This document shows, one piece after another, positions 8,504 through 48,900 of a stretch of 64,000 nucleotides of DNA. Below the pieces are notes generated by a model that did no database searches, was not told the origin of the DNA, and saw nothing but the letters and a program-made list of their open reading frames with translations. Each line of letters starts with the position of its first letter. Within the stretch, counting starts at the first letter, position 1. Source of the stretch: Nymphaea colorata (taxonomy: Eukaryota; Streptophyta; Magnoliopsida; Nymphaeales; Nymphaeaceae); the NCBI RefSeq assembly GCF_008831285.2, contig NC_045146.1:9808972-9872971 (forward strand), read 5' to 3'. The position numbers and the translations under genes were made by a program.

Positions 8504-11500
8504 GTAAGGCGATTCGCGAACTCTCATTTTCCTACTTGCTTCTCGGACATTCAACCACGTTCCTTTTTCTGATTCTTCAGATTTGTAATCTTTCTTTCTG
8601 AATGCTCTTATTGTGTGATCATCAGATGAGAAATACTTCAAATCAGAAGCGATTAAGTGCAAGGACGGATCGAAGAGTTTCGTTAGGGCTAGATTGAACG
8701 ATGGATTCTGCGATTGCGCGGACGGAACGGACGAACCTGGTGAGCAATCTCTTTCTCTCTCTAACTTCTTTTTTGCGTTGTCTTACCGAATTCGAGGAAG
8801 CTTTCTTTTCTCATGAGCTTGCGATCGAAGTTTGATGCTTTCTTTTGCGTCTGGTAACTCTTGGTTTTATCAGTACGGTGAGGGTCCCCCCCCCCCCCCC
8901 CCCCCACAACCATTTTTGAGCTCGGGAATGAAGCAGGGTCTGTCCATTGATGATGCGGAAAAAGCAGATTCACGCATTATTTGTTTCTATTGTGTAGGAA
9001 CGCCTGCATGTCCTGAGGGAAGATTCTTCTGCAGAAACTCCGGCCACACGCCCCTCACATTATTTTCTTCTCGTGTGAATGATGGCATTTGTGGTAAGGG
9101 TTTCTTTCCACTAAACTAAAATGATGTTTCTTTTTCTGCTATTTGATTGAGGGTTTGATTCTGTACCATCAAATGCTTCTGAATTTGCTTCTTGTTGTTC
9201 AAGCAAATTCTTAGTGATTGATTGTTTGTTTTATGGGGGAGCATGTTGTGTGTTAACGATGGTATTGCCACAAGATTGCTTCTTGAATTGGGCCGAAGTT
9301 TGCTTGTGTTTCTTGAACAGTTGATTGTCGTTCTGTTTGTAGTAATCTTGATGCCATCTGAAGTTGATTTTTCTTTAGAAGTTAGCTTATTTGAACCTGA
9401 CCGTCTGATGAGTGAATAGTCAAACATCTACTTTAGCTGATAGATTACATCCTCATTACATGACTTAGATGTGCCCGGAGCCATAATGAACTATGAAGTT
9501 CTTGTTTGATATTTTCAGTTTCTTTTTTTGTACTCATTGAGCAGATTGTTGTGATGGAAGTGATGAATATGATGGGAAGATCAAATGTCCAAATACATGT
9601 TGGGAGGCTGGCAAAGCAGCTAGAGAAAAATTAAAGAAGAAGATTTCTACATTTCAGGAGGGTTCTGCTATACGTAGGCAGGAAATTGAGCATGCCAAAC
9701 AAGCAATTGAGAAAGAAGAGGCAGAGCTATCAAAGCTGAAAAAAGAGGAGAAACTGCTCAAAGATGTAGTTGACAAGCTCAAAGGTAACTTGGCAAGGTC
9801 TTATCGTTTTACCCAGCTTACTCTTTATTCTACTGTCACTCAATGATGGCAAATTCTTATATATAAGAGAGAGAGAGAGAGAGAGAAGCCCTTGAACTTC
9901 AGCTTTGGATGCTATTATGCATTCTAGATTCTGCTCAAGTTTTAGACTAATTTGCACAAATAGCTTTAGTCTCAACTACTGCATAGGTTGTGTCTTGCTT
10001 TGAGAAGGTATATGCTTGCATGCCATTCATGGAACGTGTCTTACGTGTCTTAATAAGTTTTTCATGGAACGTGTCTTAATAAGTTTCTCTTATTTGCAAT
10101 TTAGCTTCATTGATATCCTGGATGTTCTCAAACTAATGCTAATATATCTAACCTACTGTTACTTATATAAAATGTTGTAAAAAGCATATTGTAAGCCATA
10201 TCAGTCCAATAGATACTTTGTATCGTAAAGTATCGTAACGTATCGTATATGTATCGTAAAATTGTATTTTTCAATATTGTAAAAAGCGTATCGTAAGCCG
10301 TATCGGTCCGGCTACTAGAATACGCTTTATCGTAAAGTATCATAACGTATCGTAAATTTATTTTTTAATTAAAAAATAAAAAAAATTAAAGAAAAATCAG
10401 ATAAATGAAGAAAAATAAAATTTATGTTTTTTAAATAAAAAAACATGTTATACATAATGGCAGGCTTATTATAGGTATGAAGTTACTTCACAAACACTAA
10501 TAAGTGGTCATAATATCATATAGTAACACAACATGATCTAAGACATCAAGAAACATAATTTATATGATGACCTACATAATAACTCACAAGTAAGTTATAA
10601 GATACATAACGTATCAAAAACCAAGTTTTACGTACACTATACATCACATCACAAGACAAAATTGTTCAATGTGAATGCAAATAACAAATGAAAACAGGTT
10701 CATTCATAATCTTTATCATCTCATTCTCATTTTCATCTTTTGTAGAAGATATAAACCCCTCTTTATGTATCCATGCATAAATCTGCTTTCAAATTGATGA
10801 TTTCATGGTGAAATTGATTATTCCTTCTGAAGATTGCCACAATCTCCCTCTCCTTCAACTATTAAATATGTTCAGAAATGAAGAGGGTGACAAGTTTTAA
10901 AAATTAGTTTGAAAAAGGATGGTTTTAACCACATACTTCTCAAAATAGACATGTATCGTGCGATATGAGGTGTATCGCCCTATATCGTACGATACAAGTT
11001 GTGTATTGCATGATACATGCGATACACATACGTTACACCACCTGTTTGCAATACAGGTGATGTATCATATTGTAAATTTTAAAAGCGACGGTATATATCA
11101 TACGATACGGCCCTAATGCGTACAACAGTGGTTTTTTTAATTCAGAAAATAAGAAAAAGTCAGAAATAAAGAACAAAACAGATAAGTAAAAAAATATGGT
11201 TTTTTTAATGAAAAAAAATGTTATACATAATGATAGGCTTATTGTAGATACAAAATTACTTCACAAACATTAATAACTCATAATATCATATAGTGACACA
11301 ACATGATCTAAGACATCAAGAAACATAATTTATAAGATCTACATAATAACTCACAAGTAAGTCACAAGATCCATAATCATCAAAAAACAAGTTTTACATA
11401 CATTATACGTCACATCCCAAGACAAAATTGTTCAATTTTAGTGCAGATAACAAATGAAAATAACTTCATTCATAATCTTTATCATCTCCATTCTCATTTT

Positions 11501-14500
11501 CATCTTTTGTAAAAGATATAAACCCTCTTTATCTAATCAAGAATCAGTAATCCATGCATAAATCTGCTCTCAAATCGATGATTTGATGGTGAAACCGATT
11601 ATTCCTTTTCAAAATTGTTAGAACCTTCCCCTCCTTCAACTGTTAGATATGTTTAGAAATGAAGGAGGCAAGTTTTAAAAATTAGTTTGAAAAGGGGGGC
11701 TTAACCCCACATTTTCCAAAATAGACATGTATTGTATCCTTAGTTGTTAAGATGTTGCCTAGGCGACGCTTAGTCATGGACTAGGTGACTTAGGGGGGGA
11801 TTTGGTGTTGGCGCCTAGGCGGTCCTGGGCTGGACTAGACACTAGCACACGTAGTCCATGGAAGGTGACTTTTCACCTTCAAAGAGTTTTTTTTTGTGTT
11901 TTCTGTTCAACATGTTTGCTGTGTGTTTTCAAAGTGTTTACTGTGTGTATAATGTGTTTCAAAGTATTCAAAGTGTTTTTCTGTGTGTTCTACCAGTATT
12001 TATTTGTCTATGAGTTCTGAAGAAACATGAGCACAAAGAAAGAGAATACGAGGAACACGATGTAACGTGGAAAAACCCTCAACAAGAGGAAAAAAACCAC
12101 AGATGAGGAGGAGCTGGTTGCCCACTAGCCGCCAGACTCTCTCTCTCTTAAGATTTCATTAACCATAAGGATTAGGGTTACACGACTTAAGTAATGCCCA
12201 ACAAGGGCTACAAGATGGATCGGGTATGGATTCAGACCCAGTCCCGAGACCCGTCTAACATACTTCAACACTCCCGCTCAAGTTGGGCATACATATCAAA
12301 CATGCCCAACTTGGATACATTTCTCTCGAATGAAGTTGAAGATAGAGCTTTCGTCAGAACATCAGCTGTTTGGTCTTCAGATCTCATGTAAGGAAGTACA
12401 AGTTCTTTAGCATCAATTCTCTCTCGAATTAAATGTCGGTCAATCTCAACATGCTTTGTTCTGTCATGAAGCACAGGGTTGTTGGCCAAGTTGATTGCAG
12501 ACTTGTTATCGCAATACATCTTCATTGGTTCTTCAACCTTTATACCAATATCCGTCAACAATACTTTTAGCCACAAAAGCTCTGAAACTCCCATAGCCAC
12601 TGCTCTGTATTCTGCTTCAGCACTGGAACGAGAACACACATCTTGCCTTTTACTTCTCCACACTATGAGATTCCCTCCCAAATAGATACAATAACCAGAG
12701 GTGGACCTCTTAGTGTCAATACAGCCTGCCTAGTCTGCATCTGAATAACCTTCAATCCCAAGAGTGTCTTGCTTGACATACAAAAGACCTTTGCCAGGAT
12801 TTCTCTTCAAGTAGCACAAGATACTGTCAACAGCCTTCAAGTGGGCATTCGTGGGAGCATGCATGAACTGACTCATCACATTCACAACAAAGGTAAATCA
12901 GGTCTAGTGAGAGTAAGATAAATCAACTTCCCTACAAGACATTGATATCTTCTTTTGGCCTCTTCACAGATAGGCTCCCCATCTCTAAGACTTAACTTAT
13001 GGCCAGCATATAGAGGAGTAGAAGCTGTTCTACACCCTAATTTCCCAGTCTCTTTTAACAAATCTAGGGTGTACTTCCGTTGATTTAGCACGAGGCTAGT
13101 CCCAGACCTAGCAATTTCAATGCCAAGAAAATATTTCAACTTACCAAGGTCCTTGAGATTAAACTCGATCGCCAACAGTTTCTTTAACTTAATTATTTCA
13201 TCTTCATCATCACCTGTGACAATCATATCATCAACATATACCAACAAAATAGTAACCTTTTGTTTATTTCTCTTCACAAAGAGTGTATGATCTCCATTCC
13301 CTTGATGGTATCCACATTGTCTCATGACAAGTCTAAGTCGTTCAAACCATGCTCGAGGAGATTGCTTGAGCCCATATAAAGCTTTCCTTAACTTGCAACA
13401 TTTTCCAGGTTCCTCATATCCTGGAGGCATACACATATATACTTCCTCTTCAAGGTCTCCATTGAGAAATGCATTCTTGACATCAAGTTGGTACATCTTC
13501 CACTCCTTCATCACAACTAAGGAGATAATGACTCTGACAGTCTTCATCTTCGCAACAGGAGCAAAGGTCTCCAAATAATCAATCCCATATTTCTGACTAA
13601 ACCCCTGGGCCACAAGACGAGCTTTGTATCTTTCAACACTTCCATCTGGTTTGTACTTGATGGTGTAGACCCACTTATATCCAACCAAGTGAGCCGCCTT
13701 AGGAATCTTTATAACTTCCCATGTCATGTTTCTTCTCAGGGCTTCCATCTCTTCTTGCATTGCATAAGTCCACTTGGGATCACTTCGAGCCTCAGCAACA
13801 TTCCTGGGAATCATAGCCAAAGAAAGAGAAGATACAAAACATTTGTAGTTCTTGCTCAGTCTAGAATATGAAACAAAATTACCAATAGGATGTTGAGTAC
13901 ATGACCTGACACCCTTTCGCAGGGCGATGGGAAGCTCTTCACTTGCAATAACAGTCTGAATCTCTTCTTCAACAGGTTGCTTCTGAGCACGACTTGGGTC
14001 ATCCAGGGAAGGACTAACTGGATTGGGAGCAGAATTCTCACCACCTATCATCTCCTCAGTACAGACTCTTCGCCTAAAATAAACTTGCCCAAACAGACGA
14101 TTGCATTCCTCTCCTGCCCCAGTAGAACACTCTCCATTTTTCTCTTGTTCAAGCACCTCAATAGAAGGACCAATGGATTCACGCCTGTAGTCTAAAAAAA
14201 CTGTAAACAGAATTTCTTGACTCGAAGAATATTCTTCCTTTGACATAGAATTCTCCCCCTGAAGAGGATTCTCACCAAAATAGGAAGTATGTTCAAGGAA
14301 AGTCACATCTTTGGTAACATAGGCACGACCAGTGGAAGGGTTCCCGACACTTATACCCTTTTTGAGTGGGAGAATAACCTAGAAATACGCCCTTAATAGA
14401 CCTTGGATCAAGCTTTTTAATGTGAGGACTATGATTATGAATAAAGCAAAGACTCCCCGGTAACATAGAGTGAGGCGTCTGCCCATTCAACACACGACTA

Positions 14501-17500
14501 GGCAAACGGTTTATAAAATACGCACTGGTCAACACAGCATCCCCCCAATACCTTTTAGGAACATGACGTTGAAAAAGAAGAGCTCGAGTCATATTCAATA
14601 ACTGACGATTCTTTCGTTCAACAACTCCATTTTGAGGAGGAGTATAACTACAAGAAGTCTCATGAACAATTCCTTTTTGTCGAAAGAAGTTATCAACAGA
14701 CTGACACATATACTCACGAGCATTGTCAGATCGAAAGGTCTTAACAGATGCTCTATATTGAGTTTCCACATAAGCAATGAAAGTCTCTATGGCAATAGGA
14801 ACTTCACTATGGTCTTTCAACAAGTAGACAATAGTGTGACGAGAACAATCATCTATAAAGGTGATAAAATACTGAAAACCATGATAAGAAGGAATCCCTG
14901 AAGGCCCCCACACATCAGAATGAATCATGGCAAATACCCCATTAGACCGATGGCTAGACAAAGGATATGAAGCCCTAACATGTTTGGCCAGGTGACAGAC
15001 ATCACAGGACACCATAGTCATATCTAACCTGGAACATAAATCAGGAAACAACTGTCTAAGAATTCCAAAAGGCAGGTGTCCAAGGCGCTCATGCCACCGT
15101 AGAAGCAATTGAAGGGACTCCTCTCTGTTCTTCGTTGCTTGACTGACTGCCGTCATGAGAGCCTGAGCAGTACGCATGGGTAAGCGATATAGCCCGTCAT
15201 AAGTCAGACCAATCCCAATCCTCTTCCCTGTCACCAAGTCCTGCATAACACAACGATCAGCAGAAAAAATTAGTTCGCAATTCAACTCTTTTGTAATCTT
15301 GCTAACCGACAAGAGGTTCAAGGGAAGATGGGGAACATGTAGAGCATTGTGGACAAAGAACTTGTTCAAAAGTGGGAGATTCCCTTTCCCAGCCACAGAG
15401 ATAGAGGAACCATTAGCAAGAGAAACACGTTCCTTTCCTGACGAAAGCTTATACCCATGAAAGACTTTAGGATCGCCGGTCATGTGGTGAGTAGCGCCAC
15501 TGTCGATGATCCACTCTCCCATAGGGGAATCCGCCATCACGTCGATCGAACACCCAAATTTCTCCTGCAGTGACAAAGGGCAGCCGCGGCAATGGGGAGC
15601 ACGCAGCAACTGGTGTGAGCAGAGGTGCTGGAACTTTGCAGCAGACCCGCAGGAGAACAATGATGCAGGGAGTAGAGGCAGCGCTAGACGGAAAGGCAAC
15701 ACCAGGAAGCAGGTCGGGCGACGGAAGACGTTGTTGGTCAGGCGGAGCAGGGAGCAGGTCGGGCGCCGATATGGACGGCGCAGAGGGCGACGGCAGGGAG
15801 GAAGGGGGGCGACAGCGAACGGTGGCAGCAATGGAGGGCACCACTGGAGTAGGGCCGACCCAGAAGGCGACGACGCAAAGGATGATGGCAGGGAGCAGGG
15901 CGCGACGTCAGGGAGCAGGTCGACGGCGCGGTCGTAAGGGCGGTGACGCCGGTGGCGGTGTCAGCAGCGTCGTCGGACGATGCAGCAGAAAGGTAACGGC
16001 GTCGGACACTGCGGCGGCGGTGGAAACGACGACGGTGACAGCAGCGGCGGCGGGTGAAGAAAACTCCACGATCACCAAAAAAGTCCCAATCTCGTGGGCT
16101 CTGATACCATGAAGAAACACGAGCATAGAGAAAGAGAATACGAGGAACACGATGTAACGTGGAAAAACCCTCAACAAGAGGAAAAAAACCACAGATGAGG
16201 AGGAGCTGGTTGCCCACTAGCCGCCAGACTCTCTCTCTCTTAAGATTTCATTAACCATAAGGATTAGGGTTACACGACTTAAGTAATGCCCAACAAAGGC
16301 TACAAGATGGATCGGGTATGGATTCGGGCCCGGTCCCGAGACCCGTCTAACATACTTCACAAGTTCCATATTTGTTTGTGTATATATGTAACTTGTTACA
16401 TCATTAAAAGCTTTTATGGTAACTGGTTTCCTCTTCTAACTCTCCATACATTGAATGCAATCCTATCATTATTGGTAACTGATTTCTTCTTCTATCTTTT
16501 CTTTCATAAATTTTGGTAACTGATTTCTTCTTCTATTTCTTTATATGTTGAACTAATCTCCATACACAAAAAACTGTTTAAGGCCTTGCATTTGACCAGA
16601 ACCAACTATAGCCTGACATTTCACTATTTGTCAAATACAACTTGAAAAACCTAAAGCTGTTTGTCAATGCATTTGATCAGAACCAACTATATCCTGGTAT
16701 TCCACTATTTGCCAATGCATTAAACATTTTATTTTGCTGTTTTATAAATTGATTTTGATTAATCCTAACTTGCTAACATGCTATAACATATAAAACATAA
16801 AACTAACATTTTAAAATTAAAAATAACGAAGCAAAAATGCAATGACTTTTGGCACATGGTGCTTAGGCAGCGGCTAGCTGCCTTGACAACTAAGATTGTA
16901 TCGTACAATATACGTCGTGTATCACACTGTACATATGATACCTGTTACGACCAGAGAGAGAGAGAAGCCAAAAAGATGCCCTTTACGTAACCCTAATCTC
17001 AAAGAGATTAGGGCTGGCGATACACTAATCAGTCCAAGAAACATAAGAAAATATTTAAAGACCTACTCTCCAACTTTCTAATATTGCAGAAACACTCTAA
17101 TCGACTGTGTAGACTGTAGAGTATTTAACACTTCCCTTCCAGTTGGAGCTTAGATATCAATCATGCTCGGCTTATTACAACCTTTCAGGAAATCGCTTAT
17201 GGAAAGAGCCTTGGTAAAAATATCAGCTGCCTGATCTTTTGAGGAGACATAAATAGTGCTAATAACTCCTTTTTGTACTAAGTTCCGAACATAGTGGCAA
17301 TCCATTTCAATCTGTTTCGTCATCTCATGGAAGACAAGATTGTTTGCAATATAGGTTTGTTGCCTTGTTGTCACAATACATCTTCGTTGGGAGCAATGTT
17401 ATCCGTATCGTACGATACGGACGCGTATCGTACGATACGTATCGTATAGGTCAAGAAAACCTATACGATACGATGTTTAAAGACGATACGCGTCTGTATC

Positions 17501-20500
17501 GTACACGTATCGCACGATACGGGGGCCGTATCGTACGATACGGGCGATACACCCCCATATCGTACGATACGGGTTAAAACACAAAATTTTTTATTTTTTA
17601 AAGTTTAAACACTCCTCCCTCTCTCTCTTCTTGTATTTAAAGACTCCAAGAGACGTAGGAGGGAGAGATTTTGCACATTTTCATAAAAAATAACCAAGGA
17701 TTCATCGATTTGGAAAATATTATCGTTAAATCATGAAAGATGATAAGTTGATAACTATATGTTTTGAACTTATAAAATTGTGATGTAATATAAGTCCTAA
17801 AACTCAAAGTCCTAAGACTCTAAGTCTTAAGATTCTATAAAATTTTCAAGTTTAAAATTGTGATGGATGCTTATTATGTTATTTTGAATATCTAATTTCT
17901 AATTTTTGTATGCGTTGTTGACACACATGAATGTTCCTTATGTATGATGATCTTTTTTATATTTGAATATATTTTTCTTGATTTCTTATTTTTTGTTTAT
18001 TTTTTCAGATTTTTAATAAATTTTCTCTATTTTTTCTGATTTTTAAATATTTTTTAAAATTAAAAAATTAATTTTACGATACGCTACGCTACGTTTACGA
18101 TACGTTACGATACAGCGTATAGGTCAGCCCGACCGATACGCGATACGCTACGCCTTTTATAACATTGGTTGGGAGATTCACTGAAACACCCAAATCTAGA
18201 AGCTCTGATCTGACTCATGACATTTCAACCATAGTTTGAGTCATAGCCCTATATTCAGACTCAGTACTAGATCGAGCCACCACATTCTGCTTCTTGCTCC
18301 TCCAAGAAATAAGATTACCTCCCACTAATACACAAAAAACCTGTAGTAGACTTCCTGTCATCTACAAACTTTACCATCACTATAAACTTCTATGTGAACA
18401 CCTTCTCCATGTTTGAATCATAACCCCTTTCTCGGGACTGATTTCAACTATCTTACTACCATTAGTGCAGCCTCCCAATGAAGCTTTCGGGGTTTTTCTA
18501 TGAATTGACTTAGCTTATTTACAATAAAGCTAATGTCAAGTCATGTAACAGTCAAATATAAAAATTTTCCTATCAGAGATCTGTAAGATCTAGAGTCAAA
18601 CTGCTCTGATTCATCATCATGGATATGAACTCGAGGATTCATAGGAAGTGTGGCAGGTTTAGCCCCCAATAAACCTGTTTCTTGCATAAGATCAAGAACA
18701 TATTTTTTTTTGAGACACTACAACTCCTTTACTACTACGTGCCACCTCAATACCAAGAAAATAACGAAGTTGACCAATGTTCTTTGTGACAAAGTGCTTC
18801 TTTAGGAACTCCTTTGTCTGAGCTATCTCTTGATTACTTTTCCCGGTGATCATCAACATATACAATCAATATCACGATATCAGATGTGTCTCGTTTGATG
18901 AGCAACAAGTGATCAAGCTGGGATCTTCGAAATCCACACTTAGATACAACCTCAGTTAGCTTATGGAACCATGCACGATGACTTTGTTTCAGTCCATGGA
19001 TAGCCTTCTTTAGTTTGCATACCTTGGAACACTTGTCATTGTTGCTCAAAACCAGGCGGTTGCTACATATAGACGGTTTCAGAGAGATCTCCATAGAAAA
19101 AGACATTTTTCACATCCAGTTGAAATAGAGGCCAATCTTGCTGGACAACAAGAGATATAATCAGTCGAATAGTACCCAACCGAGCCACAGACGAAAATGT
19201 CTCAAAGAAGTCAACCCCATACGTTTGTGTATATCATTTAGCGACAAAGCAAGCTTTAAACCGTTCAACTGAATCATCAGAATGATACTTGATGGTAAAT
19301 ACCCATTTGGAGCCAACCACATCACAATGCATTGGTGGATCCACCAAGTCCCACGTCTCCCTATAAAGTCTCCCTATAAATAAGAGCATCCATTTCCTCC
19401 TGCATGGCTGGCCTCCACCGTGAATCTAATAAGACTTGATGGTGAGAAGACGAGATAATGTGACTAGACATAGCCCGATCAAACTGCACCAAATTTGTAC
19501 TCAGATAGTAGAGAGCAATGTTGTAAAACGTGTATCGTAAGCCGTATCGGTCGGGCTTTAAGATACGCCGTATCGTAACGTATCGTAACTGTATCGTAAA
19601 TTTTTAAAAAATAATAATAATAAATCAGAAAAAATTAAAAAAAATCGGAAAATTCATAAAAAAAATCAGAAAAAATTAAAAATAATAAATTCTTCATAGA
19701 AAACATGTTTTGGTCTTTTAGATAATGATAGACTTATTATTTTGCTAAATGCTATAAACTTACGCGTTCACGCGGACGGTTCATCATTCATTCTTCATAG
19801 ACATCAAAATTCATAACAATATTATTCTTTTTCATCTTCATCTTCATGGTTTAGAAAAACCCCTTTCCTTCCAATGGGAATCAGCCACCCATGCACAAAT
19901 CCATGGTTTAATAGATGATTTCACAATGGAAATCGATGATTTCCCTCTAAGGCGGTACAATCTATAGATTAGAAATGAAGAAGGGGTGAGTTTTTATAAA
20001 AAAAAACTCGAAAAAATGGTTTCAATCCCCCTTTTTAGAGATCAGCCCGTATCGTACGATACGGGGGCTCGTATCGCACGTATCGTACGATACAGGTACG
20101 ATACACCCCCATTTACGATACAGGGGGTGTATCGTATCGTATTTTGTAAATGATACGGCCCCGTATCGTACGATACGTACAACACTGGTAGAGAGAATTA
20201 AAAATTAGATGTAGTGTGCATTGTTGCTTGCCCTTGCGAATAGCAATAGGTAGATCATCTGTGGAGTAGTCATCATTTAAACCTGAGTCAGTCTTATCAG
20301 TGGAGCTTACCTCTTGAGAAGGTGCTGGTGGGTGGTTTGGGGAGGAAAAATGTTCGTGACGACGAGTGTAGACTAAGGGAGGATCAAGGAAACAATCATG
20401 TGACATAGGTGGAGAAGGGGGAATTGACTCAAGTGACACAGGAGGAATAAGAAGAGGAATAGAAACTGACATCTCAGACGTAGAGGGACTAGGACTCAAA

Positions 20501-23500
20501 GAATGTAACATCCGCATTGATAATCTCTTTCTTTGTCTGGGGGTCAAAGCACTTATAGCCTTTTTGATTGGTAGAATGTCTAATAAATACACATTTGATG
20601 GCTTGGGCAGCAAACTTGTTTTTGTTAGGGCCTAGGGCGTGTGCAAAACAGGTGCATCCAAATACTTTGGGAGATATATGAAATAATGAACGATCTGGAT
20701 ATAAAATTTAAATGGGAATGCGTTCTAAATAGAGTCCCTCACATTCAGGGCTGCCATCAATCATCTTTCCAGTTAGTAAGTCTTGAAAAGAACATGAACT
20801 AGGGTAAAAAATGACTCTACATTGTAAATCACTAGCCAGTTGCTTAACATATAACAAATTAACAGGGAATCAATGAACATATAGCACATGTGTAATGGTG
20901 CTTGAGTGTGAGAGGTAAATATCATTGCTGCCCAAAACAGGGGACAACTTGCCATCAGCTAGTCGGACATCTTGTCGAGTAGAGAATCTGATGAAGGAAG
21001 AAAACATCTGCGGCTGATTACAACAGGGCTTGGATGCTCCTGAATCTATCATCTACATCATACCTAGGTCATCGGTAGGGGCACCAATGGAGAAGGTTGA
21101 GTTTACTGCTAATGTGGTGGCAGATCTCTAAACAAGAACAAGATCATATTCATTTTTACTTAAGTGAATATGACGTGGGTGTAAGAGAATCAATAGAAGA
21201 CCCAACCATAGATATAGTCGCCTTCGAGAAAGCTGCTTGGGATGAAGAAGACCCTTTGGCTGCAGTGATTCTACCTCCACCACCCTCGGATAGACTAATA
21301 GAATGAAGATGAGGATGCTTATCCTAACAAATGGCCCAATTTGCCATAAAATGTACATTGAAACCTGCCACGTCCTGCACCGCGGCTTTACCACGTCCTC
21401 TAGCTCCAACATAAGGACTATGGCCACGTCCTGCACCACGATTTTACCATGTCCTCTAGCTCCAACATAAGGACTATGGCCACGTCCTCCTGATATCACA
21501 AGTGCAGATTCTGGCGTATCATGCGTAGGCTGAGAAAGAGTGACTGCAAGACGACTCAATCTATTATATGTGTCTGCTAATCTGGAAGATCATTGCCTGT
21601 GAGGATTTGAGACTTTGCCACAGAGTACTTTGAAGATAACCCAGATAGAAACTTTGCTACCATACTAGTTTTAAGGTGTGATGCATAGCAATGTTTGCAA
21701 GACAGACAAAGAGCTTTTAACCATTCATATGCAGCAATTAATGTAGCAAAATATTGTGACAGGTCTTGATCTCCTTGCCGTATGTTACAAAGCTCCTCTT
21801 CCAGTTGTAGAATCTTAATAACATTAGTAGCATGAAAATATGTCTTCTTCAAGAAAGACTCTATATCTTTAGCCCTGGTGTAGTATGCAATTGTTGGAGC
21901 TATACGGGACTCTACACTGTTCATAATCCATGACATTACAATGTTATTATCTTCATCCCACAGAGCATATTTCCTCTTTTTCTCAGGAGGTTCATCTTCT
22001 TCAAGAATATATTTCTTCCTATGACCAGCCACAGACATCATAAACACCCTAGACCAGATTTCATAGTTTGAACCATTAAGTTTGATCGTGGTTCCATATG
22101 AGAAAGAATTTCCAGCCATCTTGTAGTCATTAGAACCCTCAAACATATTACCATTAGCCATAGCAAAACCCCACATAGAATTTTTCGCACAATATATGTA
22201 TGTATAAGATGCAACAGTCAACAACAGTCGAGAAAGGTATCTCTACGGACCACAGAAATATTAAACCAAATATAATAAGCTGGGCAACACAAAAGGATCA
22301 CAATCACTAGTCCTGAATCAAACCTGAACCGTCTAACAAGAGAAGATACCACCTTATTACTGTTTCAGCCGATGACTGCTGCAGCCCAGTCTTAGTGATC
22401 CCATATACGACTGCACATAGGACTAGCAATTTTAACCACCATTCACGTATGGCAGATCAATTCTGCTATACTGCTCCACGTGATCATCTGATTACTTCTT
22501 AACCAATGTCCACATATGGCAGATCACTGCTACAATACTCTAATCATCATCCACAGCCAGCATATTCTGATCACGCTTGAAACTGCATCCACGAACAGTA
22601 GAAAAATATTTTCCTGCTCCACACGATCCACATGAGGATCTGATCACACCTTCCACACAGGCGTGATCAGGTCCTCCATGCAGCAAGGTCTATCCTCTTA
22701 TCTCCTCTTTGCTGATTGAGATAGATGACAATAGAAGATAAGAGGAAAAGAGATAAGAAGATGCCGGAGAAGAGGGAACAAGTCGCCAGAGAGAGGTGCC
22801 CCGGAAAATCTGCTTGGCTGCCAGCGTTAGGTCGTTCTTGGCTCTGATGCCATGTTACGATCAGAGAGAGAGAGAAGCCAAAAAGATGTCCTTTACGTAA
22901 CCCTAATCTCAAAGTTAAAGAGATTAGGGCTGGCGATACAATAATTACAAATTCAGTCCAAGAAACATAAGAAAATATTTAAAGACCTATTCTCCAACTT
23001 TCTAATATTGCAGAATCACTCTAATCGACTGTCTATAGTATTTAACAATGCCACGATACACAAGCTGTTTGCGATACAGGTGGTGTATCGTGTCGTAAAT
23101 CTAAAAAGTGATGATATGCATCGTACAATACAGCCCCGTATGCACCATATGATACAGCCCCGCATCGTACGATACATACAACACTAAATATGCGATTTTT
23201 TTTTCGTGTTGTTTTACAATCATTGTTGATCTGATGTATGGGTGAGTATTATTAACCTCTTGGTCCTCTTATTCTCTCCCCCCTTCCCCCATTGTTTTCT
23301 TTCTTTAGTTTTGTCTTTTGAAGGAACAGCAGTCTCATTTTGAACAACGGATACATAATGATTGTGAAAGTAAGCAACGTTGCACTGTGTTGATGATAGG
23401 TTATGCCAAAATAGCAAAAACATACAAATGCAATTAATTGGAGCTGCGGTTTTGAAATTTCATGATCTCAAACCATGATTTCTGTTTCTTTTTTTGTTTT

Positions 23501-24200: not shown

Positions 24201-24266
<66 letters not shown>

Positions 24267-36200: not shown

Positions 36201-39200
36201 CCAGAGAAATACGTGTGGACCTCACTTTTGCAACCTGAATACAGATTTATTTTCTCATTTGTGAGGGTGTTTTTGTGTGTTATATGTATATTATATGTTA
36301 TATTTACAATCTGTTGTAAACTTGTAATGTATATTATATGTACTGATTTGATATGATTTTTGTTTGAAATGATTCAAATGAAATAGTCTGTAAGGTCTAT
36401 AACTGAAATAGTTAACATTGTCTAGTATGTAAATTGTAAACAACACAATTTTCTTTTGCGTATCAAACTAAGGCATCAGCTAGAACATTACAACACAGTT
36501 TTCCAGTATGTAAACATGCTGGAAACGTACTGTTAATCTGTCATGTAAACAAGAACAGAACACTTTTTCATGTTTTACTCTTTGGCTTCACTTTACAAAG
36601 TATAATCATCCAATCAGGACAGAACAGAACAGAACAGTTTTTCAAGTTTTACTTGGAAAATAAGCTTATAGTTCAGTCAGTAACTATATAATTTTATTAT
36701 GTAATGATTAACATAACTAAAAAAACAAAAAAAAAGTCGCCTTTTTTGCTTCGGCGCCTTGAAAACTAAGTTTACACCCAGAACGTGCATTTGCAGGTCC
36801 TTTGACCAGTATGAAATTGGTGAAATTCTTTGAACTCTCCAACCACAACTGCGCTTCCAATATAGTTGTTATTCTGCCTGTTTTCTCCCCCCTTGATCTT
36901 ACTTTTGTTAAGAGAACTTGATCCAAGCATTGGAGTGAAAGCCGTGGTTCAGAATGTGCCGGCTAAGGGTTAAAAAAGGGTTCCCCCTAGGTTGCTTTTG
37001 AGCTTGCAGTTTGGCATGATTGATTGTTGCTGCTAAGATTGCCAATGTCGATGAAAACATGAGATATAGATACAAGGGATAACCCTTAGTTCTTAGGTTT
37101 TCTGGAACTATAATATGTTCTTTTAAAATTTAAACATGGTTTGATTTAAAAAAGTATAATTACTTTTCTGATGTCTTTTTTTTCATATTGCTTGAGTTAT
37201 GCATGGTTGAAATTATTTCTAAGAAGTTTGTTAAGCTTCTGATGCAAGGCTGATATGTTGGGAACGGGTCTTGTAGAGAGGTCATTTTATGTCTGCTTTA
37301 TTATGGATTAGTAGACCTTTTATTTTCTGATCGAGATTTGTTTTGGATCCAGATCCATATTTAGTCTATTTAAGAGGGACTTGTGATTCATTTGAATTTT
37401 ATTGAAGATTAATGAAAACCTTAATCTCTTCTTTTAGGTTATTTCCTTCCTTTATTTATATGTTTTCTCTATGTTCCTCGATTTGCTTTTTTACTTGTCA
37501 TTTAGATAGTAGTTTGCAGCGGGGATTAGAACTAACCCTCTAATCACTGCATCAGCTTCTGGTACTGAATTTATTTTTAGTTATGAAATACATGAACATT
37601 ATGTTTGTTTGTGGACAAGTTTCAGATGAGACTTAAGCCCACATCATTCCTTAGAATGGAGATGGATCACAAATGGTACTATTAGTTCTTTCTAAAAATC
37701 TACATGATTTCTTGAAAACATCAGAAATGTCAGCCTGTGAACTCACTTGATACAAGACCTGAATGTGCAGAGGTTCAATGCGTGTCCTTTATATCATGTG
37801 TAGGGAGTTATAGATTTCTTTATAACATTTTTGTGTATGTCGCTTACGCAGCCTTAAGTAGTTGTTGCAGTTAGTATATGCTGAGGCATAAATTAGGTAG
37901 TACAGATGGAGTTGATGAGGAGGGACTGGACACATGGATTCATCTTCGTCTCCTTTCATGGGTTCAGTGAAAGGTTTGCTCCTATATCGATTTGGCTGTA
38001 TAAGAAGCATGACAGTCTACTTCAGGATACTGTACTTGTATACCAACTTTGTCCTAGCATTTGTAAGAATCAACATATTGCAAATATGAATGTAAACAGT
38101 CGAAGAAAAAAACTCATAGCCAACTCACAATAATAAGCATTAAGGCCAAGACACCAAGTGATAGAGAATGAAGAAAATATTATTGATTCACAAAAGAAGT
38201 TGTAAAACAGAGCATACCTGTGACAAAGAATCAAGGTGATATACGTGCAACAAAGAATAAAGATCAGAGAAGACCTTTCAGAGAGGTAGCCATTGGACTA
38301 GCTCCAATGGCTAGATCCATCTCAGCTGCACCTGAAAATAAAAAGTCCAAAAACAAGGAAAGTAAAAATAATAAACATGTTACAACTTCCTATATACCAG
38401 TATAAACATTAAATGCACACACACACACACAGAGATCTATGAATCATAGTCAGTGAAATTTATACAAGTATTTAACGTATAATTTAAAATCCCTCCTCAA
38501 ACTTATGGTGTGATCACTGCAAGTTGCCTAAAAGAAATTTAAATCTTGGTGGGCACAAAGGTTTGATGAAGAAATTAGCGAATTGAAATTCTGAAGGAAA
38601 ATATGACAGATAGATTGTCTTCTTCGAAAACTTTTCACGATCGTAATGATAATCCATATTTATATGATTAGTACGCTTATGAAATTTGCGATTCTTAGCT
38701 GTGCATATAGAACTTTTATTATCACAGTGCAACTCAGTGGGCTCTTCTATTCTTGTTCCCATATCAAGCAGCAGTTGTCTCAGCCATACTATTTCCATAG
38801 TTTAAAATGCCGTTGAAATTAACTTACCACATGTACTGCATGGGCAATATTAGGATGAGTAATGCTAAGGTATATGAGTGATCCCACTATATTCCTATAT
38901 GGTATAGGATTATCCAGAATTACACCATCATCAATCTTTATTTTAGAATCTTAGATCATGCCACCTGAGTTATGACTGAGTTAGCCAAGTCACAGGTTGG
39001 TTTAATTGATCATTGCTGCCCCTTTATGCGGCCTCCAACAGCATCGAGGAAGGCAACGACCTCTGCCCGCAGGTCTGTTGTGGCAGACCTGCATCATTCT
39101 TTATGTTTTTCCATTTAAAGGAGAAAAGGACCGTACAATTAAGAGAAATCTGATGGCCCTAAAAACGGTTGTGTGGGGTACGATGCAGTTGGCGTCATTC

Positions 39201-42200: not shown

Positions 42201-45200
42201 CCCACCTCATCACCTACTTCTCTGCTGCAAGTGGTCACATCTCTAAGGGCTATCACTTCCCTATTGAAGTTATATGTTCATTTGGAGGATGGCCTTGTTA
42301 CTTCAGCAGTTGAGTTTTGGTGAAGTTACACTTGGAATGTGATTACATTGCTGCCGCCATAACAGAAGCTGAAGCAAAAGTTCAGTTTGTGCACATGAAG
42401 CCCTGATTGATGCTCTGTAGGCATTAATTACAATTCTCCCTAGAGACATTCACATATTAATGATGAATGGCAATCCTATAGTTGGAGAGTCAGAAACAAG
42501 AATCATATTGGATTCTTTAGTGAACAAATTTCTTGACTATATCAATGAGCTTCTTGCAATAGGAATGCTAGCTCGCAGTCAGTGAGTTGTTTTGATTCAC
42601 TGGAAGTGGTGCAGCTTGGATTTGTTGCTACTTATCCCCTACTACATAGTTAATAGTGGAGGTCACACCCTGCAAATCAAATGCGACTCTTAATCGAGTT
42701 CTTGTTGATGTCGTTGACAGCTTTGCAAATGCAAGTGAAGGTTCTTTCCTTCCTATGCTGAATCAATTAAATTTGTAATGGAGTTGCAATCTTCAGCTTG
42801 GGGCACAAGAATCACATGGGTAGCACAAAATGAAAGCACTCTCCACTTTCATTCATAATCTTTATCATCTTTATTCTCATTTTCATCTTCATCTTCATGA
42901 AGTTGAACACCCTCATCAACATAGCCAACAGCTCTCATGCATTAGCAATTTCTGTTACTTCAGCTTCAATGTTGAAGCATTGAAGATGATCATCAAATAT
43001 TGTAGTTGGTTCATCCCATGGTTCTAGCACATCAAAGTTGTCCCAGCTGATAGGATCAAACAGAGATGTGTGTTTTCTTGCTGATGTTTTTTGTAATTGC
43101 CTATGTTAAATAAGAGAAAACTTGTTAATATACAATTATATATATTATATAACAAATGTATGCTACACTAAGTTGTATTATGTTTGTGTGAACCTCATAT
43201 TATAAAGAACAGAAACAAGGTCATTCAACCTTTTATGTTTGAACCTGTTCCTGTTGTGGATGTGTTGGAAAATGCTTTAATTCATTTCGTATGCACTAGC
43301 ACTACATGTTTGGCTAAGGGCTTTAATTGCAAAAGTTTTACGGTTTTGACAATCATTCCCAAACTTATTCCACTATAAATGTAAACAAAAAAAAAGAAGG
43401 AATCTCACGTAAAAGTAAAACAACAAAAAGATAACAAATGCAAAGTAAATTATTTTTTTTTTGTGTAATTACCTGGACACATGGTTGTCCTGGTTCGAAT
43501 GGTTGTGCTTATTTTCATGTCTTCTATACAATTATCATAAAGTTCCAATTCATTGTGCACACATCTTGTGCTCTAGAATTTGTCATTAACACTTCAACAC
43601 AATTTAGCAAACCATGCATGACTTCTCTCTCCTTTGTAAATGTATTCCAATGGCAGGATTTAGGTAGTAAGTTGCTGCATGAAGATGTTGATGAATTGTC
43701 CAGTCCACCTTTTATCTATAATATTTCATATGGACACGTATAACTTTTTCATTCCTTTCAAGTTCTCTTGAATTTCCTCTTTTGGTCTATCCATAACTTC
43801 ATACAAGTACCCTATGGAAGGCTTGTCTTCACTGTTAGCTAACCTGAGGACTTTAATGACTGAGACACAAATCTTCAATAACTTCACATATGATTCTCAT
43901 AATTCATTATTAAATATATATCTTTAACTATAGAAGATTTTCTTTTACGAGCATGTGGATATGCTGTCCATTCTTCATGGAGGACATTTGCCTCAACGGG
44001 GTCTTTGTTTCACTATGCTCTGCATAGTCAACACATTTGTAGCAAATCTAGTTTGTGCAGGTCATATTAATTCAATCCCTTTGTATTGTTCTCATCAAAA
44101 TCAATACGTGTGCATGATTATAGATAAATTTTGTAATCTCTTGGCCTTAGTCAACAACTGATCTCATATCATACGTTTCGCCAAGATCTTGAAGCATTAG
44201 ATTAACACAATGAATGACACACAAACTCCAATAAAATGTATACTTTTGAAACAACATATCTCATGCAACTCTATAATTTTCAGCGTTGTCTATAATAAAC
44301 GGTACAATGCTTGTAGGTCCAACTTCTTATACGATATTATCAAAAACATTGATAAAATTTCAACAGTCTTAGAAACATCAAACAAATCAAGAGATTTCTA
44401 GAAGACTCCTTTAGGGCTATAAACAAGAAAATTCACAAGTGTTTTTGACTATATATCAGTTCATCCATCTCCCTTAATGAGGCAACATGTTTCCTTCCAA
44501 CTCAATTTCAATTCGTTGCAAGTTCCATTACTTCTTTTACTGTAGCATCAAGAAATTTGCCCATTGACTAATGATATGATGGCTTTTTAAATCAAGGGCC
44601 TATAGAAGCAATCACATCTGCCATGGCCTCAAACTGAAAGAAATTACCTGCATCGAAAGGAATACATGCATTATAAAATCATTTCCTTACAGTCATTTGT
44701 GCTTGCTCTAGCATACCTTTAGATGTCATAGCTGCACGAATATGGGGCTGAGAACTTGGGCTAGTATATGAAGGGAAAAAGTTCTTGATGGAACCAACAC
44801 TAGACCTGCCACTAGGAACTCTATCGCTAGGTCTACAACAACCATGAGGTCCCCAACCACCACGCCTAATATTTGATTCACCTCTTGTCTTCCTCCCAGA
44901 TGGGACAGATCTACCTCGGAACTATCGACATTTGTTCTTAGACTGATGTCACATTCATCATTTTCAACGTTTTCATCATCTTCTTCAACTTCTTCATCAT
45001 AGCCCTGATCTGCCTCTTCCATTTGTTTTTGCACCTTCTTTTGATGTAAAACATTAATCCAGTATTGTACGTATCGTATGATACGGAGCCGTATCGTACG
45101 ATACGTATCGATACAAATACGATACGATACACCTCTCATATCGTACATTTACGATACGAGCACCGTATCGTACGATACGGTTACGATATGGCAATGATAC

Positions 45201-45873
45201 AATTACGATACGACACGATACAGTTACGATACGGCACGATACAGGTACGATAGGGTAATTTTTATTGATTTTTTATTATTTTTTGAGAATTTTTTTATAT
45301 TTTTTCTGATTTTTTTTTTAAAATAAAACGATATGGTTACGATACATTACAATAGATTACGATACAACGTATCTTAAAGCCAGACCGATACGGCATACGA
45401 TACGCTTTTTACAACATTGCATTAATCATATCTAGACATTACTGATGCACAAATGGAGGCAAATATTTGTTTGCTTTTCCAATTCATGGAGCCACATCAC
45501 AATGTGTCCTTGCAAAATGGTGTTGCATTCTAATAATCCCTCCTGAAAATATACTGTCACAACATTCGCATTGGATTCTTAACTGGTCATTCTCCTTCAC
45601 CCTTTTTCAGCACTGCCATGTGGGATCGGACGATGCCATATTTTTAGAAAAAAGTGAAAACCTACAGTGAGCGTAACAAAAAACAATTGGAATCTATGAA
45701 TTTATAGTAAAAATATATGAATCTATGGTTAAAACGAGAGATTTCATACCTTATGGAGAAGAAATCGAAAAAACTCCTTTCTTCCCAATGGGGAATTCAC
45801 CACCCACACACCAATCTATGGTTTAATCGATGCTTGCAGGATGAAAATCGATGATTCCCCTCCAAATCGGCAT

Positions 45874-45909
<36 letters not shown>

Positions 45910-48900
45910 CCCTCCAACTCTAGAATAGGTTTGGGCATGAGGAGGGGGTGGGTTTTAAAGCAACATTTGTAAAAAGATACAACTATGGTACACCATCTGT
46001 TTAGGATACAAGTGTTGTACCATATCGCGTTTTCAAAATGCATACATACAACGCTGGGGTAGAGTTCCTACTTGTTGCGCAACATTAATTACATGAATAC
46101 CTATAGAAAATATGGTTGCATAAACTGGATTCCAACTGCTCAGAAGTTGGAAGCAATTCCTCCATAGTAATGCAAGTATTGATTGTACGTCATAGAAATG
46201 TTTTGGCGTCTTCTTTTCTCAGGTTGATGATGATTAATGAATAAAAAAGTACCGTGGCTGTAAAGAAATGAACTTCCACTTGATGTTTGGCTTATTTTAA
46301 CGTGATGATTCCTACTTGTTGCGCAACATTAATTACATGAATACTTACGGAAAATATGGTTGCATAAACTGGATTCCAACTGCTCAGAAGTTGGAAGCAA
46401 TTCCTCCATGTAGAAACACGCAGCGGAAGAAGAGAAGGGAAAACAAACACAGAATTTATGTGGAAAACCTCAGAACGAGGTGAAAAACCACGGGGAAGCA
46501 CTAACCTAGGGGCAAAACCGCAACCCTAGGAGAGAGAAATCTTAATTCACTTAATCAACAATTACAATAAGTGATTAGAATAAAAGAGGGAGGAAGAGAG
46601 ACCCGCCTAGGGAACTGAGCCCGTCCTCGGTTCCCATGCCCATGGGTACCGGGTCCATATCCGAACCCGGTTCCCTATTACACGGTATTCTAAGTTTCTA
46701 ACACTCCCCCTCAAGCATGGCATACATGTCCAACATGCCAAGCTTGCTAACATTCTTTTCAAATTGAGATGTACATAAGGCTTTAGTTAGAACATCTGCA
46801 ATTTGATCTTCAGACTTCATATAAGGAAGGATCAACTCCTTTGAATCTATGCGCTCCCGTATGAAGTGGTGATCTATTTCCACATGTTTGGTTCTGTCAT
46901 GCAGGACGGGATTATTTGCCAGGTTAATCGCAGACTTATTGTCACAATACATTTTCATCTTCTTTTTAATTTCAATTCCAATATCTGCTAGAAGAATCTT
47001 TATCCATAACATCTCTGTAACCCCCATAGCAATAGCCCTGTATTCAGCCTCAACACTGGATCTAGAATAGACCTCCTGCCTTTTACTCCTCCATACCACC
47101 AGGTTTCCCCCTAGAAAGATGCAGTACCCTGTGGTAGACCTTCTGGTATCCGTGCAACCAGCTCAATCGGCGTCAGAGTATCCTTCAATATTAAGTTTGT
47201 CCTACCGTGTATACAGTAACCCTTTACCTGGGTTATTCTTCAGGTACCCCAACACTCTTTCTGCACTCTTCCAGTGACAATCAGTAGGAGCATGCATAAA
47301 CTGACTCAACACATTTACAACATAAGTAATATTAGGGCGAGTAAGCGTAAGATAAATAAGCTTACCAACCAGACTCTGATACCGTCCTTTTCCTTCCTCA
47401 TCCAGGATGTTACCAGTTTTGATACTTATCTTTGTACCTGACTCCATTGGAGTTAGAAAGGGCCTGCATCCCAGTTTACCTGTCTCTTTCAAGAGGTCCA
47501 GAGTGTACTTCCTTTGGCTCATAACAAGCCCTGTCTCTGATCGTGCAATCTCTATTCCCAAAAAGTACCTTAATTTTCCCAGATCTTTAAGGTCAAATTC
47601 AGCAGCTAACCTCTCCTTCATCTTCCTTTTCTTTTCTTCATCATCACCTGTGACAATCATATCATCAACATACACAAAAAGAATGCTCACCAGGCCACTT
47701 CTCTGCTTAATGAACAGGGTATGATCACCATTTCCTTGTTTGTACCCATTTGTCTCCATTACCACCCTTAATCTTTCAAACCATGCTCTAGGGGACTGCT
47801 TCAGGCCGTACAGGGCCTTCTTGAGATGACAGCATTTTCCACTTTAAGCATATCCGGGAGGCATGCTCATATAGACCTCCTCCTCTAGATGGCCGTTCAA
47901 GAAGGCGTTCTTGACATCAAGCTGGTCCATGCCCCACTTCTTTTGCACTGCAAGTGCCAAAATAACCCTCACAGTCTTCAGTTTTGCAACAAGAGCAAAG
48001 GTTTCAAGATAGTCAATTCCGTATTTTTGGCTGAACCCCTTTGCAACCAGACGAGCTTTATACCGATCCACAGTGCCATCAGGTTTATACTTCACACTAA
48101 ACACCCATTTGGAACCAACTAAGTGAGTCCCCTTGGGAATATCGACCACTTCCCAAGTGTTGTTCTTTGCCAAGGCATCCATCTCCTCTGTCATGGCCTG
48201 TAGCCATTTAGGATCCTCTCTAGCATCTTCCACACACCTGGGAATCACAGACATAGACAGAGTGGTAATAAAGCATTTGTATTATTTACTGAGTTTTGAA
48301 TATGAGACAAATCTCTGAATAGGGTGAGAAGTACATGACCTGGTGCCCTTGCGCAAGGCTATGGGAAACTCTTCATTCATTGGACTTGGTTCATTCGGGG
48401 AACTCACAGGATTGGGATTGGTTACATCAACAGTCTCAACCACATCTTTTTCCTTTCTAGTGTAAACCTGCCCAAACAAATGATCACAGGATGTGGGGTG
48501 ATCATTCCCCTTCCACATGACTGTCTTTATCATCTCTGACTGTATCTTCCACACTATGACTAAGTTTGTAGTCCAAGAAGTCAGTAAACTGAATAAGCTG
48601 ATTTGGAGAATACTCTTCCACACTGTCCCCTATACACTCCCCCTGAAGAGGATTCACAGGAAAATACCCCTCATGTTCATGAAAGGTAACATCTCGGGAA
48701 ACAGATTTTGGAGGTAGTAGGATCAATACATTTATATCCCTTCTGAGTGGAGGAATACCCCAAGAAGACAGCTTTGACAGACCGAGGGTAAGTTTCTTGA
48801 TGGTGGGACTATGGTTTTTGTTGAAGTATGTCATAACGAGTGAAACACATTATGTTAATTATAGTTGATGAGGTGGGCACTAGTGAGGAGAGCATCGCCC

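What the first reader, a model, noticed from the sequence alone, without database searches (positions are those of the whole stretch)
10170..46056. hAT-like family with ends packed with the palindrome CGTATCGTACGATACG, plus a transposase-bearing relative in the same gene
Five non-coding copies (A1b, A1a, A2, A3, A4) and one element with a decayed BED/DUF659 hAT transposase share TIRs of the form CARTGTTGTA and subterminal sequence. Four copies have clear 8-bp target duplications. The subterminal zones are arrays of TATCGTA/TACGATA, often fused into the perfect 16-bp palindrome CGTATCGTACGATACG; I count seven perfect copies (17404, 17424, 17527, 20048, 20162, 45090, 45164). In known hAT elements subterminal repeats bind transposase. 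An array of perfect palindromes suggests a dimeric binding mode, and such ends could also form cruciforms. I do not recognise this family.
Basis: partly seen in the sequence, partly recalled or inferred. Interest (0 to 1): 0.72.

Follow-up and report, generated by a model that had tools for sequence, protein, structure and literature searches.

The report
Plant jumping-gene family with palindrome-studded end
These are pieces of a large family of plant cut-and-paste jumping genes, still represented by near-identical copies with open genes, in which one end carries regularly placed DNA palindromes that its enzyme probably grips in pairs, an arrangement seen in simpler form in two animal relatives.

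Summary
All seven perfect palindromes are there; the host genome (407.8 Mb) holds 1198 (control 0). Two sister hAT subfamilies carry them: alpha (TIR CARTGTTGTA) and beta (CAATGTTATC; window copy A2). All 22 transposase-bearing loci fetched (13 alpha, 9 beta) have perfect 8-bp target duplications and a palindrome (at most 1 mismatch) starting at base 11. Beta includes open frames (predicted 774 aa; BED, DUF659, hAT dimerisation domains; Hermes-like by sequence) and copies 99.8% identical. Short copies are internal-deletion derivatives. Correction: palindromes sit only at the transposase-gene end; the other end has the half-site CGTATCG in one orientation (258:0 over 64 copies). Palindromes stay alike between alpha and beta although silent sites are near saturation. 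This resembles Hermes, where two BED fingers bind a quasi-palindrome just inside the left TIR, but multiplies it. Against a strict palindrome requirement, 9 of 32 bounded short alpha copies carry the first box as a direct repeat, all with perfect duplications. No binding was tested. New variant of a known kind.

The parts
10170..10271 (-). A1b, 3' end fragment (alpha-type); its remainder is interrupted by A1a, other elements and copia-like sequence as far as 23186
   Evidence: blastn 10171-10257 at 82% to bounded alpha copy L032; start AAATGTTGTA
10272..11130 (-). A1a, old non-autonomous alpha copy nested in A1b
   Evidence: TIRs CAATATTGTA/CACTGTTGTA, 7-of-8 TSD; 68-81% to L002/L039
17394..18167 (+). 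A2, non-autonomous beta copy, 774 bp, palindrome end on the left
   Evidence: perfect TSD GTTGGGAG; 98% to bounded beta copy L086; clean empty site in copia-like relative L104
17404..17571 (.). A2 palindrome zone: perfect at 17404, 17424, 17527; one mismatch at 17506, 17556
19516..20187 (-). A3, non-autonomous alpha copy, 672 bp, palindrome end on the right
   Evidence: perfect TSD GTAGAGAG; of 40 scored genome places one is A3 itself and the other 39 are 80-91% identical
20048..20177 (.). A3 palindrome zone: perfect at 20048, 20162; one mismatch at 20079
23052..23186 (-). A1b, decayed 5' (palindrome-side) end fragment
   Evidence: blastn 78-81% to alpha copies; end TACAACACTA
42829..46056 (-). 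decayed transposase-bearing alpha element (5' TIR at 46047-46056), 3' truncated, interrupted by A4
   Evidence: 77-79% to full-length L002; TIR CAGCGTTGTA; short broken frames
45060..45419 (+). A4, non-autonomous alpha copy, 360 bp
   Evidence: perfect TSD CATTAATC; 86% to L032
45070..45179 (.). A4 palindrome zone: perfect at 45090, 45164; one mismatch at 45070

Best explanation
These are copies of a recently active plant hAT family (alpha and beta subfamilies) with transposase-bearing elements of about 3.43-3.65 kb and many internal-deletion derivatives. Shown: TIRs, perfect 8-bp target duplications, an empty site, open BED-DUF659-hAT transposase frames, one-ended palindromes in a recurrent register (+11, +31, then about +122, +143, +172), and same-direction half-sites at the other end. 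Inferred mechanism: the N-terminal BED fingers of the transposase read the half-site CGTATCG. At the 5' end two fingers sit on each palindrome, the first centred 18.5 bp from the tip, and the phased array loads a multi-subunit complex. The 3' end carries single sites in one orientation and is captured second. The asymmetry sets the polarity of end pairing, as in Hermes. Then the DDE core cuts and joins at staggered 8-bp targets.
For: 22 of 22 transposase-bearing loci have perfect TSDs and a palindrome (at most 1 mismatch) at +11; TSD was a selection criterion for none of them, and nearness to palindromes only for four (L001, L002, L014, L015). Short alpha copies selected on the 3' end: 32 of 60 bounded (26 with a perfect TSD), control with neighbouring 8-mers 1 of 216; short beta, selected on the 5' end: 14 of 20, control 0 of 102. 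Half-site CGTATCG in 64 copies: 3' ends 258 forward, 0 reverse; 5' ends 275/319; 1 in about 67 kb of interior (the alpha 3' selection pattern itself holds two forward sites per copy). Alpha L006 against beta L014 transposase: 64% aa identity over 637 codons, dS 1.37, dN 0.26; four pairwise alignments of 5' zones give 79-95% identity inside palindromes and 49-57% outside. Pfam DUF659 2.8e-57, Dimer_Tnp_hAT 1.4e-13, BED 5.1e-6; Hermes 6dww E = 2.4e-7 with D, D, CxxH and E aligned. Empty sites for A2 (clean) and A3 (6 extra bases). Hermes precedent: PMC10368747, passages.
Against: No binding or mobility test. In 9 of 32 bounded short alpha copies the +11 box is CGATACGTACGATACG or a decayed form of it, i.e. 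direct half-sites, and two more (L047, L080) keep only one half there; all nine have perfect TSDs; the genome holds 50 matches. Only 14 of 32 have the +11 palindrome with at most 1 mismatch. Hence an exact palindrome at +11 is not strictly required, at least when transposase is supplied in trans. In the six full-length beta copies counted only 11 of 29 palindromes (at most 2 mismatches) are perfect. Conservation could partly reflect turnover within the array rather than selection, and columns were marked because they are palindromic in one of the two sequences. Hermes binds no BED at its right end, whereas here the 3' end is rich in half-sites.
Confidence: 0.68

Rival explanations
1. The palindromes are mainly regulatory: they lie upstream of the transposase gene and bind transposase or a host factor to control transcription, and are dispensable for mobility.
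For: They are confined to the gene's 5' side; in L014 they start at 68-229 and the predicted ATG is at 570.
Against: Short copies without a gene keep them (28 of 32 alpha with at most 1 mismatch), down to a 242-bp copy with perfect palindromes at +11 and +31; the first palindrome abuts the TIR at the same distance in both subfamilies. Recent derivatives could simply have inherited them, so this is not excluded, and both roles may coexist.
Confidence: 0.17
2. The half-site, not the palindrome, is the functional unit; palindromes are one of several tolerated pair arrangements and arise because short repeats at the 5' end turn over and invert. (Not exclusive of the best explanation.)
For: The direct-repeat box in a branch of short alpha copies with perfect TSDs; variable numbers of palindromes; monomeric sites at the 3' end.
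Against: All 22 full-length loci keep the palindrome (at most 1 mismatch) at +11; comparing the printed lists by eye, none of the 50 direct-repeat 5' ends lies within 4 kb of a transposase match printed (that list is cut short); a sequence-unrelated hAT family in the same window also has a perfect palindrome directly inside one TIR.
Confidence: 0.3
3. The array acts through DNA structure (cruciform or hairpin), for silencing or for recognition.
For: The 5' 200 bp of L014 folds far better than shuffles, z = -11.3.
Against: Any palindrome array folds well; the 3' end shows no such excess (z = -1.8); arms of 8 bp are short for stable extrusion (general knowledge).
Confidence: 0.06
4. Chance or low-complexity artefact of AT-rich repeats.
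For: The TIR 10-mers alone are not enriched in the window.
Against: 0 palindromes expected; genome 1198 against 0; TSD controls.
Confidence: 0.005

Closest known systems
Hermes (housefly hAT), left end LE11-27 with BED fingers (PMC10368747; passages read)
   Same: BED at the N terminus and hAT core by sequence; an inverted pair of sites at bases 11-27 (centre about 19 by the bases named there) just inside one TIR (here 11-26, centre 18.5); site orientation differs between the two ends; 8-bp duplications (recalled for Hermes).
   Different: Hermes has one quasi-palindrome near the tip, built of AAGT/AAGC, and no BED contact at the right end; here there are several 16-bp palindromes of another sequence and many half-sites at the 3' end. 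The transposase has a DUF659 region.
Tol2 (medaka hAT)
   Same: A perfect palindrome (AAGTACTT) directly after the left TIR, as stated in PMC10368747.
   Different: 8 bp, a single one, other sequence; the transposase was not compared here.
Ac/Ds (maize hAT), AAACGG subterminal repeats (PMC3260210; passages read)
   Same: Autonomous element plus abundant shorter derivatives; many short subterminal repeats; 8-bp TSD.
   Different: The Ac repeats are non-palindromic hexamers; 'palindrom' does not occur in the held text of that paper.
Second hAT-like family in this window (TIR CTTAGTTGTTAAGG, 35737-36770)
   Same: Perfect 8-bp TSD and a 22-bp perfect palindrome directly inside one TIR only.
   Different: Unrelated palindrome sequence; autonomous partner not sought.

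Membership tests
hAT superfamily | 8-bp target-site duplications | tested here: met
   22 of 22 full-length perfect; short copies 32 of 60 and 14 of 20 bounded, controls 1 of 216 and 0 of 102; weak preference nTTnnAAn over 60 sites after symmetrising
hAT superfamily | Short terminal inverted repeats | tested here: met
   10-bp CARTGTTGTA (alpha) or CAATGTTATC/A (beta) at both ends of the bounded copies; end sequences were part of how most copies were selected
hAT superfamily | Transposase with BED finger and hAT C-terminal dimerisation domain | tested here: met
   PF02892 5.1e-6, PF05699 1.4e-13, PF04937 DUF659 2.8e-57, all above gathering cut-offs, for the predicted protein of L014
hAT superfamily | RNase-H-like DDE core with CxxH motif | tested here: met
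   By sequence alignment only: D, D, CxxH, E line up with Hermes 6dww, E = 2.4e-7; the residue roles are recalled; no structure was predicted
hAT superfamily | Subterminal repeats bound by the transposase | tested here: inconclusive
   Repeats confined to the ends; binding not testable here
Hermes-type end recognition (mechanism, not membership) | BED pair on an inverted site just inside one TIR only | tested here: inconclusive
   Layout matches; binding not tested; direct-repeat boxes exist
Hermes-type end recognition (mechanism, not membership) | Octameric ring of transposase | not testable with these tools
   Needs purified protein
MITE / non-autonomous derivative | Short, no transposase gene, ends shared with an autonomous element | tested here: met
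   E.g. L044 = about bases 1-387 plus 2918-3130 plus 3261-3452 of L002; L093 = about 1-404 plus 3078-3482 of L014

The most novel reading that the evidence does not exclude
A hAT transposon with a two-ended code: a phased array of palindromic boxes (up to six perfect ones, L096, hence up to a dozen BED half-sites) at the 5' end and a same-direction ladder of the identical half-site at the 3' end, read by one transposase assembly. One-sided palindromes next to the TIR would then be a general way for BED-type hATs to tell their two ends apart, reached with unrelated sequences in at least two families of this genome.
Probability: 0.3. Interest if true: 0.62.

Novelty: new variant of a known kind. 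Interest (0 to 1): 0.45.

Why it matters
To my knowledge (recalled, and as PMC10368747 says of purified transposases) how hAT transposases choose and pair two different ends is known in structural detail only for Hermes. This plant family has nearly identical copies with open transposase frames, hundreds of derivatives with countable, phased sites, and a natural direct-repeat variant of the first box. That makes the rule 'inverted pair at one end, monomers at the other' testable, and could yield a new plant transposon tool. It does not overturn any known biology.

Tried and rejected
TIR search alone as evidence: rejected, the 10-mers are not enriched in the window. Chimeric beta/alpha element at C7:10549131-10552911, suspected from an alpha-like 3' end beside a 68% transposase: rejected, the full beta element ends earlier with its own perfect TSD GTACAGCG, and the alpha end belongs to something beside it. 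Palindrome loci outside the family: one search prints palindromes only up to 10.04 Mb of contig 1, 27 clusters by my count; I fetched 16, and 15 of 16 have a 5' TIR with at most 1 mismatch within 220 bp (L105 does not); only 4 of the 16 (L107, L109, L116, L120) could be bounded at both ends in pieces of about 1.5 kb. The other 11 clusters are in the lists or 26 or were bounded. A3 empty site: all 40 scored relatives (of 261 candidates) match across the joined flanks, but the one aligned, L103, has 6 extra bases at the junction; for A2 all 40 scored (of 857 candidates) match and the one aligned, L104, is clean. So only A2 gives a clean empty site.

Selection and rows dropped: L001 and L002 were fetched because both end patterns were printed about 3.4 kb apart; L003-L013 and L021 because a printed 3'-end match lies beside a transposase match; L014 and L015 because palindromes lie beside a transposase match; L016-L020 and L022 for high-scoring or long open matches. 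Of the 100 places printed (512 counted) I fetched 60 as short-copy candidates, leaving out those with a transposase match nearby and some at the end of the list; the printed places are nearly all exact matches, so young copies are favoured. 28 of these 60 and 6 of 20 beta places could not be bounded and are not in the palindrome counts. First fetches L010, L017, L021 and L022 cut off an end and were replaced by L122, L124, L121 and L123.

Structure prediction: not run, because its stated rule does not list loci cut by the fetch from genomes. Literature: the palindrome string, 0 papers; its 12-base core, 2 DNA-nanotechnology papers, listing only; TIR strings, 148 papers of which 20 were listed, titles and abstract starts only, none of those 20 about transposons by title; topic searches, listings only except PMC10368747 and PMC3260210 (passages). 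The library is open-access PMC only, and Repbase/Dfam could not be searched, so the family may already have a name there. Host: 407.8 Mb, and the 13 contig lengths seen (C1-C12 and C14, 12.6-44.0 Mb) resemble the 409-Mb, 14-pseudo-chromosome Nymphaea colorata assembly (PMC7015852, passages), but 783 contigs does not equal the 804 scaffolds reported there, and identity was not tested.

Full report
OBSERVATION. The window is contig 9, 9808972-9872971, of a 407.8-Mb genome in which the palindrome occurs 1198 times and its reversed control never. A2, A3 and A4 have perfect 8-bp duplications; A1a has 7 of 8 in a T run; for A1b I read none. The transposase relic (42829-46056, minus strand) is interrupted by A4 and lacks its 3' end. 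The broken-up A1b and the relic are old (77-82% to their nearest copies here); A2 is young (98% to another copy). The TIR 10-mer alone would not have been significant.

GENOME-WIDE FAMILY. TIR joined directly to the palindrome occurs 359 times for alpha (at most 2 mismatches, control 0) and 257 times for beta (at most 3, control 0); the alpha 3' end 512 times (at most 3, control 0). A 238-aa transposase fragment of one alpha copy gives 151 matches from 150 scored of 1053 candidates. I fetched 22 transposase-bearing loci: 13 alpha and 9 beta. All 22 have TIRs and a perfect 8-bp duplication once the full element was in the piece; how they were chosen is told under Tried and rejected. In one search, apart from the two outliers L001 and L002, alpha copies are 96-99% identical to one another, and six beta copies 94-99.8%. 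L014, a beta copy, has an open three-exon reading of 774 aa; the same model stays open in 5 of 7 further beta loci (759-778 aa) and its junctions were not found in the other 2. A main frame of 639-662 aa is open in 9 of 13 alpha loci (8 of 12, and L122); their last exons were not joined. Six beta matches have the same score at six loci, which with 99.8% identity of L014 and L016 points to recent transposition.

TRANSPOSASE. BED, DUF659 and the hAT dimerisation domain all pass Pfam cut-offs. In the sequence search of solved structures four distinct sequences match: two labelled Hermes, two labelled only transposase (4d1q is Hermes according to PMC10368747; 2bw3 is Hermes by recall); the best has E = 2.4e-7 over residues 238-676, with the catalytic D, D and E and the CxxH motif in register (roles of these residues recalled). 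Alpha L006 and beta L014 differ at 36% of residues, with dS about 1.37 and dN about 0.26 over 637 codons, i.e. purifying selection with silent sites near saturation.

END ANATOMY. Oriented with the transposase gene, the 5' end carries palindromes (at most 1 mismatch) at +11 in 12 of 12 alpha and 6 of 6 beta full-length copies, at +31 in 8 of 12 and 6 of 6, and further in most often at +122/123, +143/144 and +172/173 (3-5 of 12 and 3 of 6 each); the four re-fetched loci also have +11. Spacing within the first pair and the next pair is 20 or 21 bp, about two helical turns. In short alpha copies +11 is kept in 14 of 32 and +31 in 6 of 32. The 3' end has no palindrome even at 2 mismatches; its half-sites CGTATCG all read inward (258 against 0 in 64 copies), while the 5' end has both orientations and about 67 kb of interior has one. 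The alpha 3' selection pattern contributes two forward sites per short alpha copy, but cannot explain the absence of reverse sites. In four alpha-beta pairs of 5' zones, palindrome columns are 79-95% identical and the rest 49-57%; the marking favours palindromes somewhat. In decayed palindromes 89 of 163 mismatches are C-to-T or G-to-A at CpG, as expected of methylated DNA.

NON-AUTONOMOUS COPIES. Selected on the 3' end only, 32 of 60 short alpha loci could be bounded (26 with a perfect TSD; control 1 of 216); 28 of 32 have a palindrome with at most 1 mismatch and 20 of 32 a perfect one. Selected on the 5' end, 14 of 20 beta loci were bounded (13 perfect; control 0 of 102). Many of the larger ones are about the first 350-400 bp joined to parts of the last several hundred base pairs of a full-length copy. 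The smallest, 242 bp, keeps two perfect palindromes 20 bp apart and a 3' ladder of half-sites. A2 and A3 sit in copia-like sequence (my reading); 40 of 40 scored relatives of each joined flank pair read through the empty site, cleanly in the one aligned for A2, with 6 extra bases in the one aligned for A3. Over 60 perfect duplications, made symmetric, T is favoured at 2-3 and A at 6-7.

MECHANISM. Shown: an element family with the anatomy above. Inferred: BED fingers read CGTATCG. The closest tested case is Hermes (PMC10368747, passages read): two BED fingers bind a quasi-palindrome at bases 11-27 of the left end, cooperatively and without touching each other; a 1-bp shift away from the TIR impairs cleavage; the right end binds no BED; and site orientation differs between ends. 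The same paper notes a perfect AAGTACTT palindrome directly after the Tol2 left TIR. Here the first palindrome occupies bases 11-26 (centre 18.5; the Hermes centre is about 19 by the bases named) and is repeated. I therefore think that two BED fingers sit on each palindrome, that the phased array loads the transposase assembly at the 5' end, and that the 3' half-sites are engaged afterwards. The binding steps are untested.

RESULTS AGAINST. In one branch of short alpha copies the +11 box is two direct half-sites, CGATACGTACGATACG or a decayed form: 9 of 32 bounded copies (L030, L039, L044, L055, L069, L072, L076, L081, L082), all with perfect duplications; L047 and L080 keep only one half. The genome holds 50 matches within 2 mismatches, two of which look nearer to the palindrome. 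So an exact inverted pair at +11 is not indispensable. By eye, none of the 50 lies within 4 kb of a transposase match printed, whose list is cut short. In six full-length beta copies 11 of 29 palindromes (at most 2 mismatches) are perfect. Array turnover could help to keep palindromes alike. One palindrome locus of 16 fetched has no recognisable 5' TIR (L105). The 3' half-sites have no counterpart in the Hermes model.

BREADTH. A sequence-unrelated hAT-like family in the same window (35737-36770; TSD TTTACACC perfect) has a 22-bp perfect palindrome directly inside one TIR only. A pattern containing that palindrome has 50 genome matches, control 0. Of 16 copies fetched, 8 were bounded with at most 1 TSD mismatch, 5 of them perfect (no TSD control was run for this family). 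L127 and L128 appear to be one place duplicated, and L125 and L130 share a target sequence and may be. These were selected on the palindrome, so they say nothing of its frequency, but the layout recurs.

VERDICT. A genuine, recently active hAT family; new variant of a known kind because of the repeated, phased, one-sided palindromes. I found no description of it in the searches listed under Tried and rejected, which cover open-access PMC only.

Noticed in passing
window 35737-36770: A different hAT-like family: TIR CTTAGTTGTTAAGG, perfect TSD TTTACACC, 22-bp perfect palindrome AGGCATGGACTAGTCCATGCCT directly inside one TIR only.
   Followed up: partly
window 11739-16894: Another element with CTTAGTTGTTAAG/CTTAGTTGTCAAG ends and a perfect TSD ATTGTATC (flanks printed), containing what reads like copia sequence and itself lying inside A1b.
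   Followed up: partly
window about 27372-32590: By eye, a copia-like retrotransposon with long direct end repeats (TTAGAATATCTTGTGTAAGGGAACCGGG...) in an intron of the glucosidase II beta-like gene.
   Followed up: no
G000 C1:20372542 and 49 other places: Direct-repeat variant of the first box (CGATACGTACGATACG) right after the TIR: a natural test of whether inversion of the half-sites matters.
   Followed up: partly
beta 3' ends, e.g. L014:3494-3506: A second, different near-palindrome (GGTCGGCCCGACC) in the beta 3' end, about 33-46 bp from the tip; alpha copies read here have only one half of it.
   Followed up: no
G000 C11:12103207-12115107 and C14:11502349-11507859: Local clusters of two or three transposase-bearing copies within 12 kb, perhaps short-range transposition.
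   Followed up: no
L105 (G000 C1:1038057-1039607): A perfect palindrome without a recognisable 5' TIR within 220 bp; probably a fragment.
   Followed up: no
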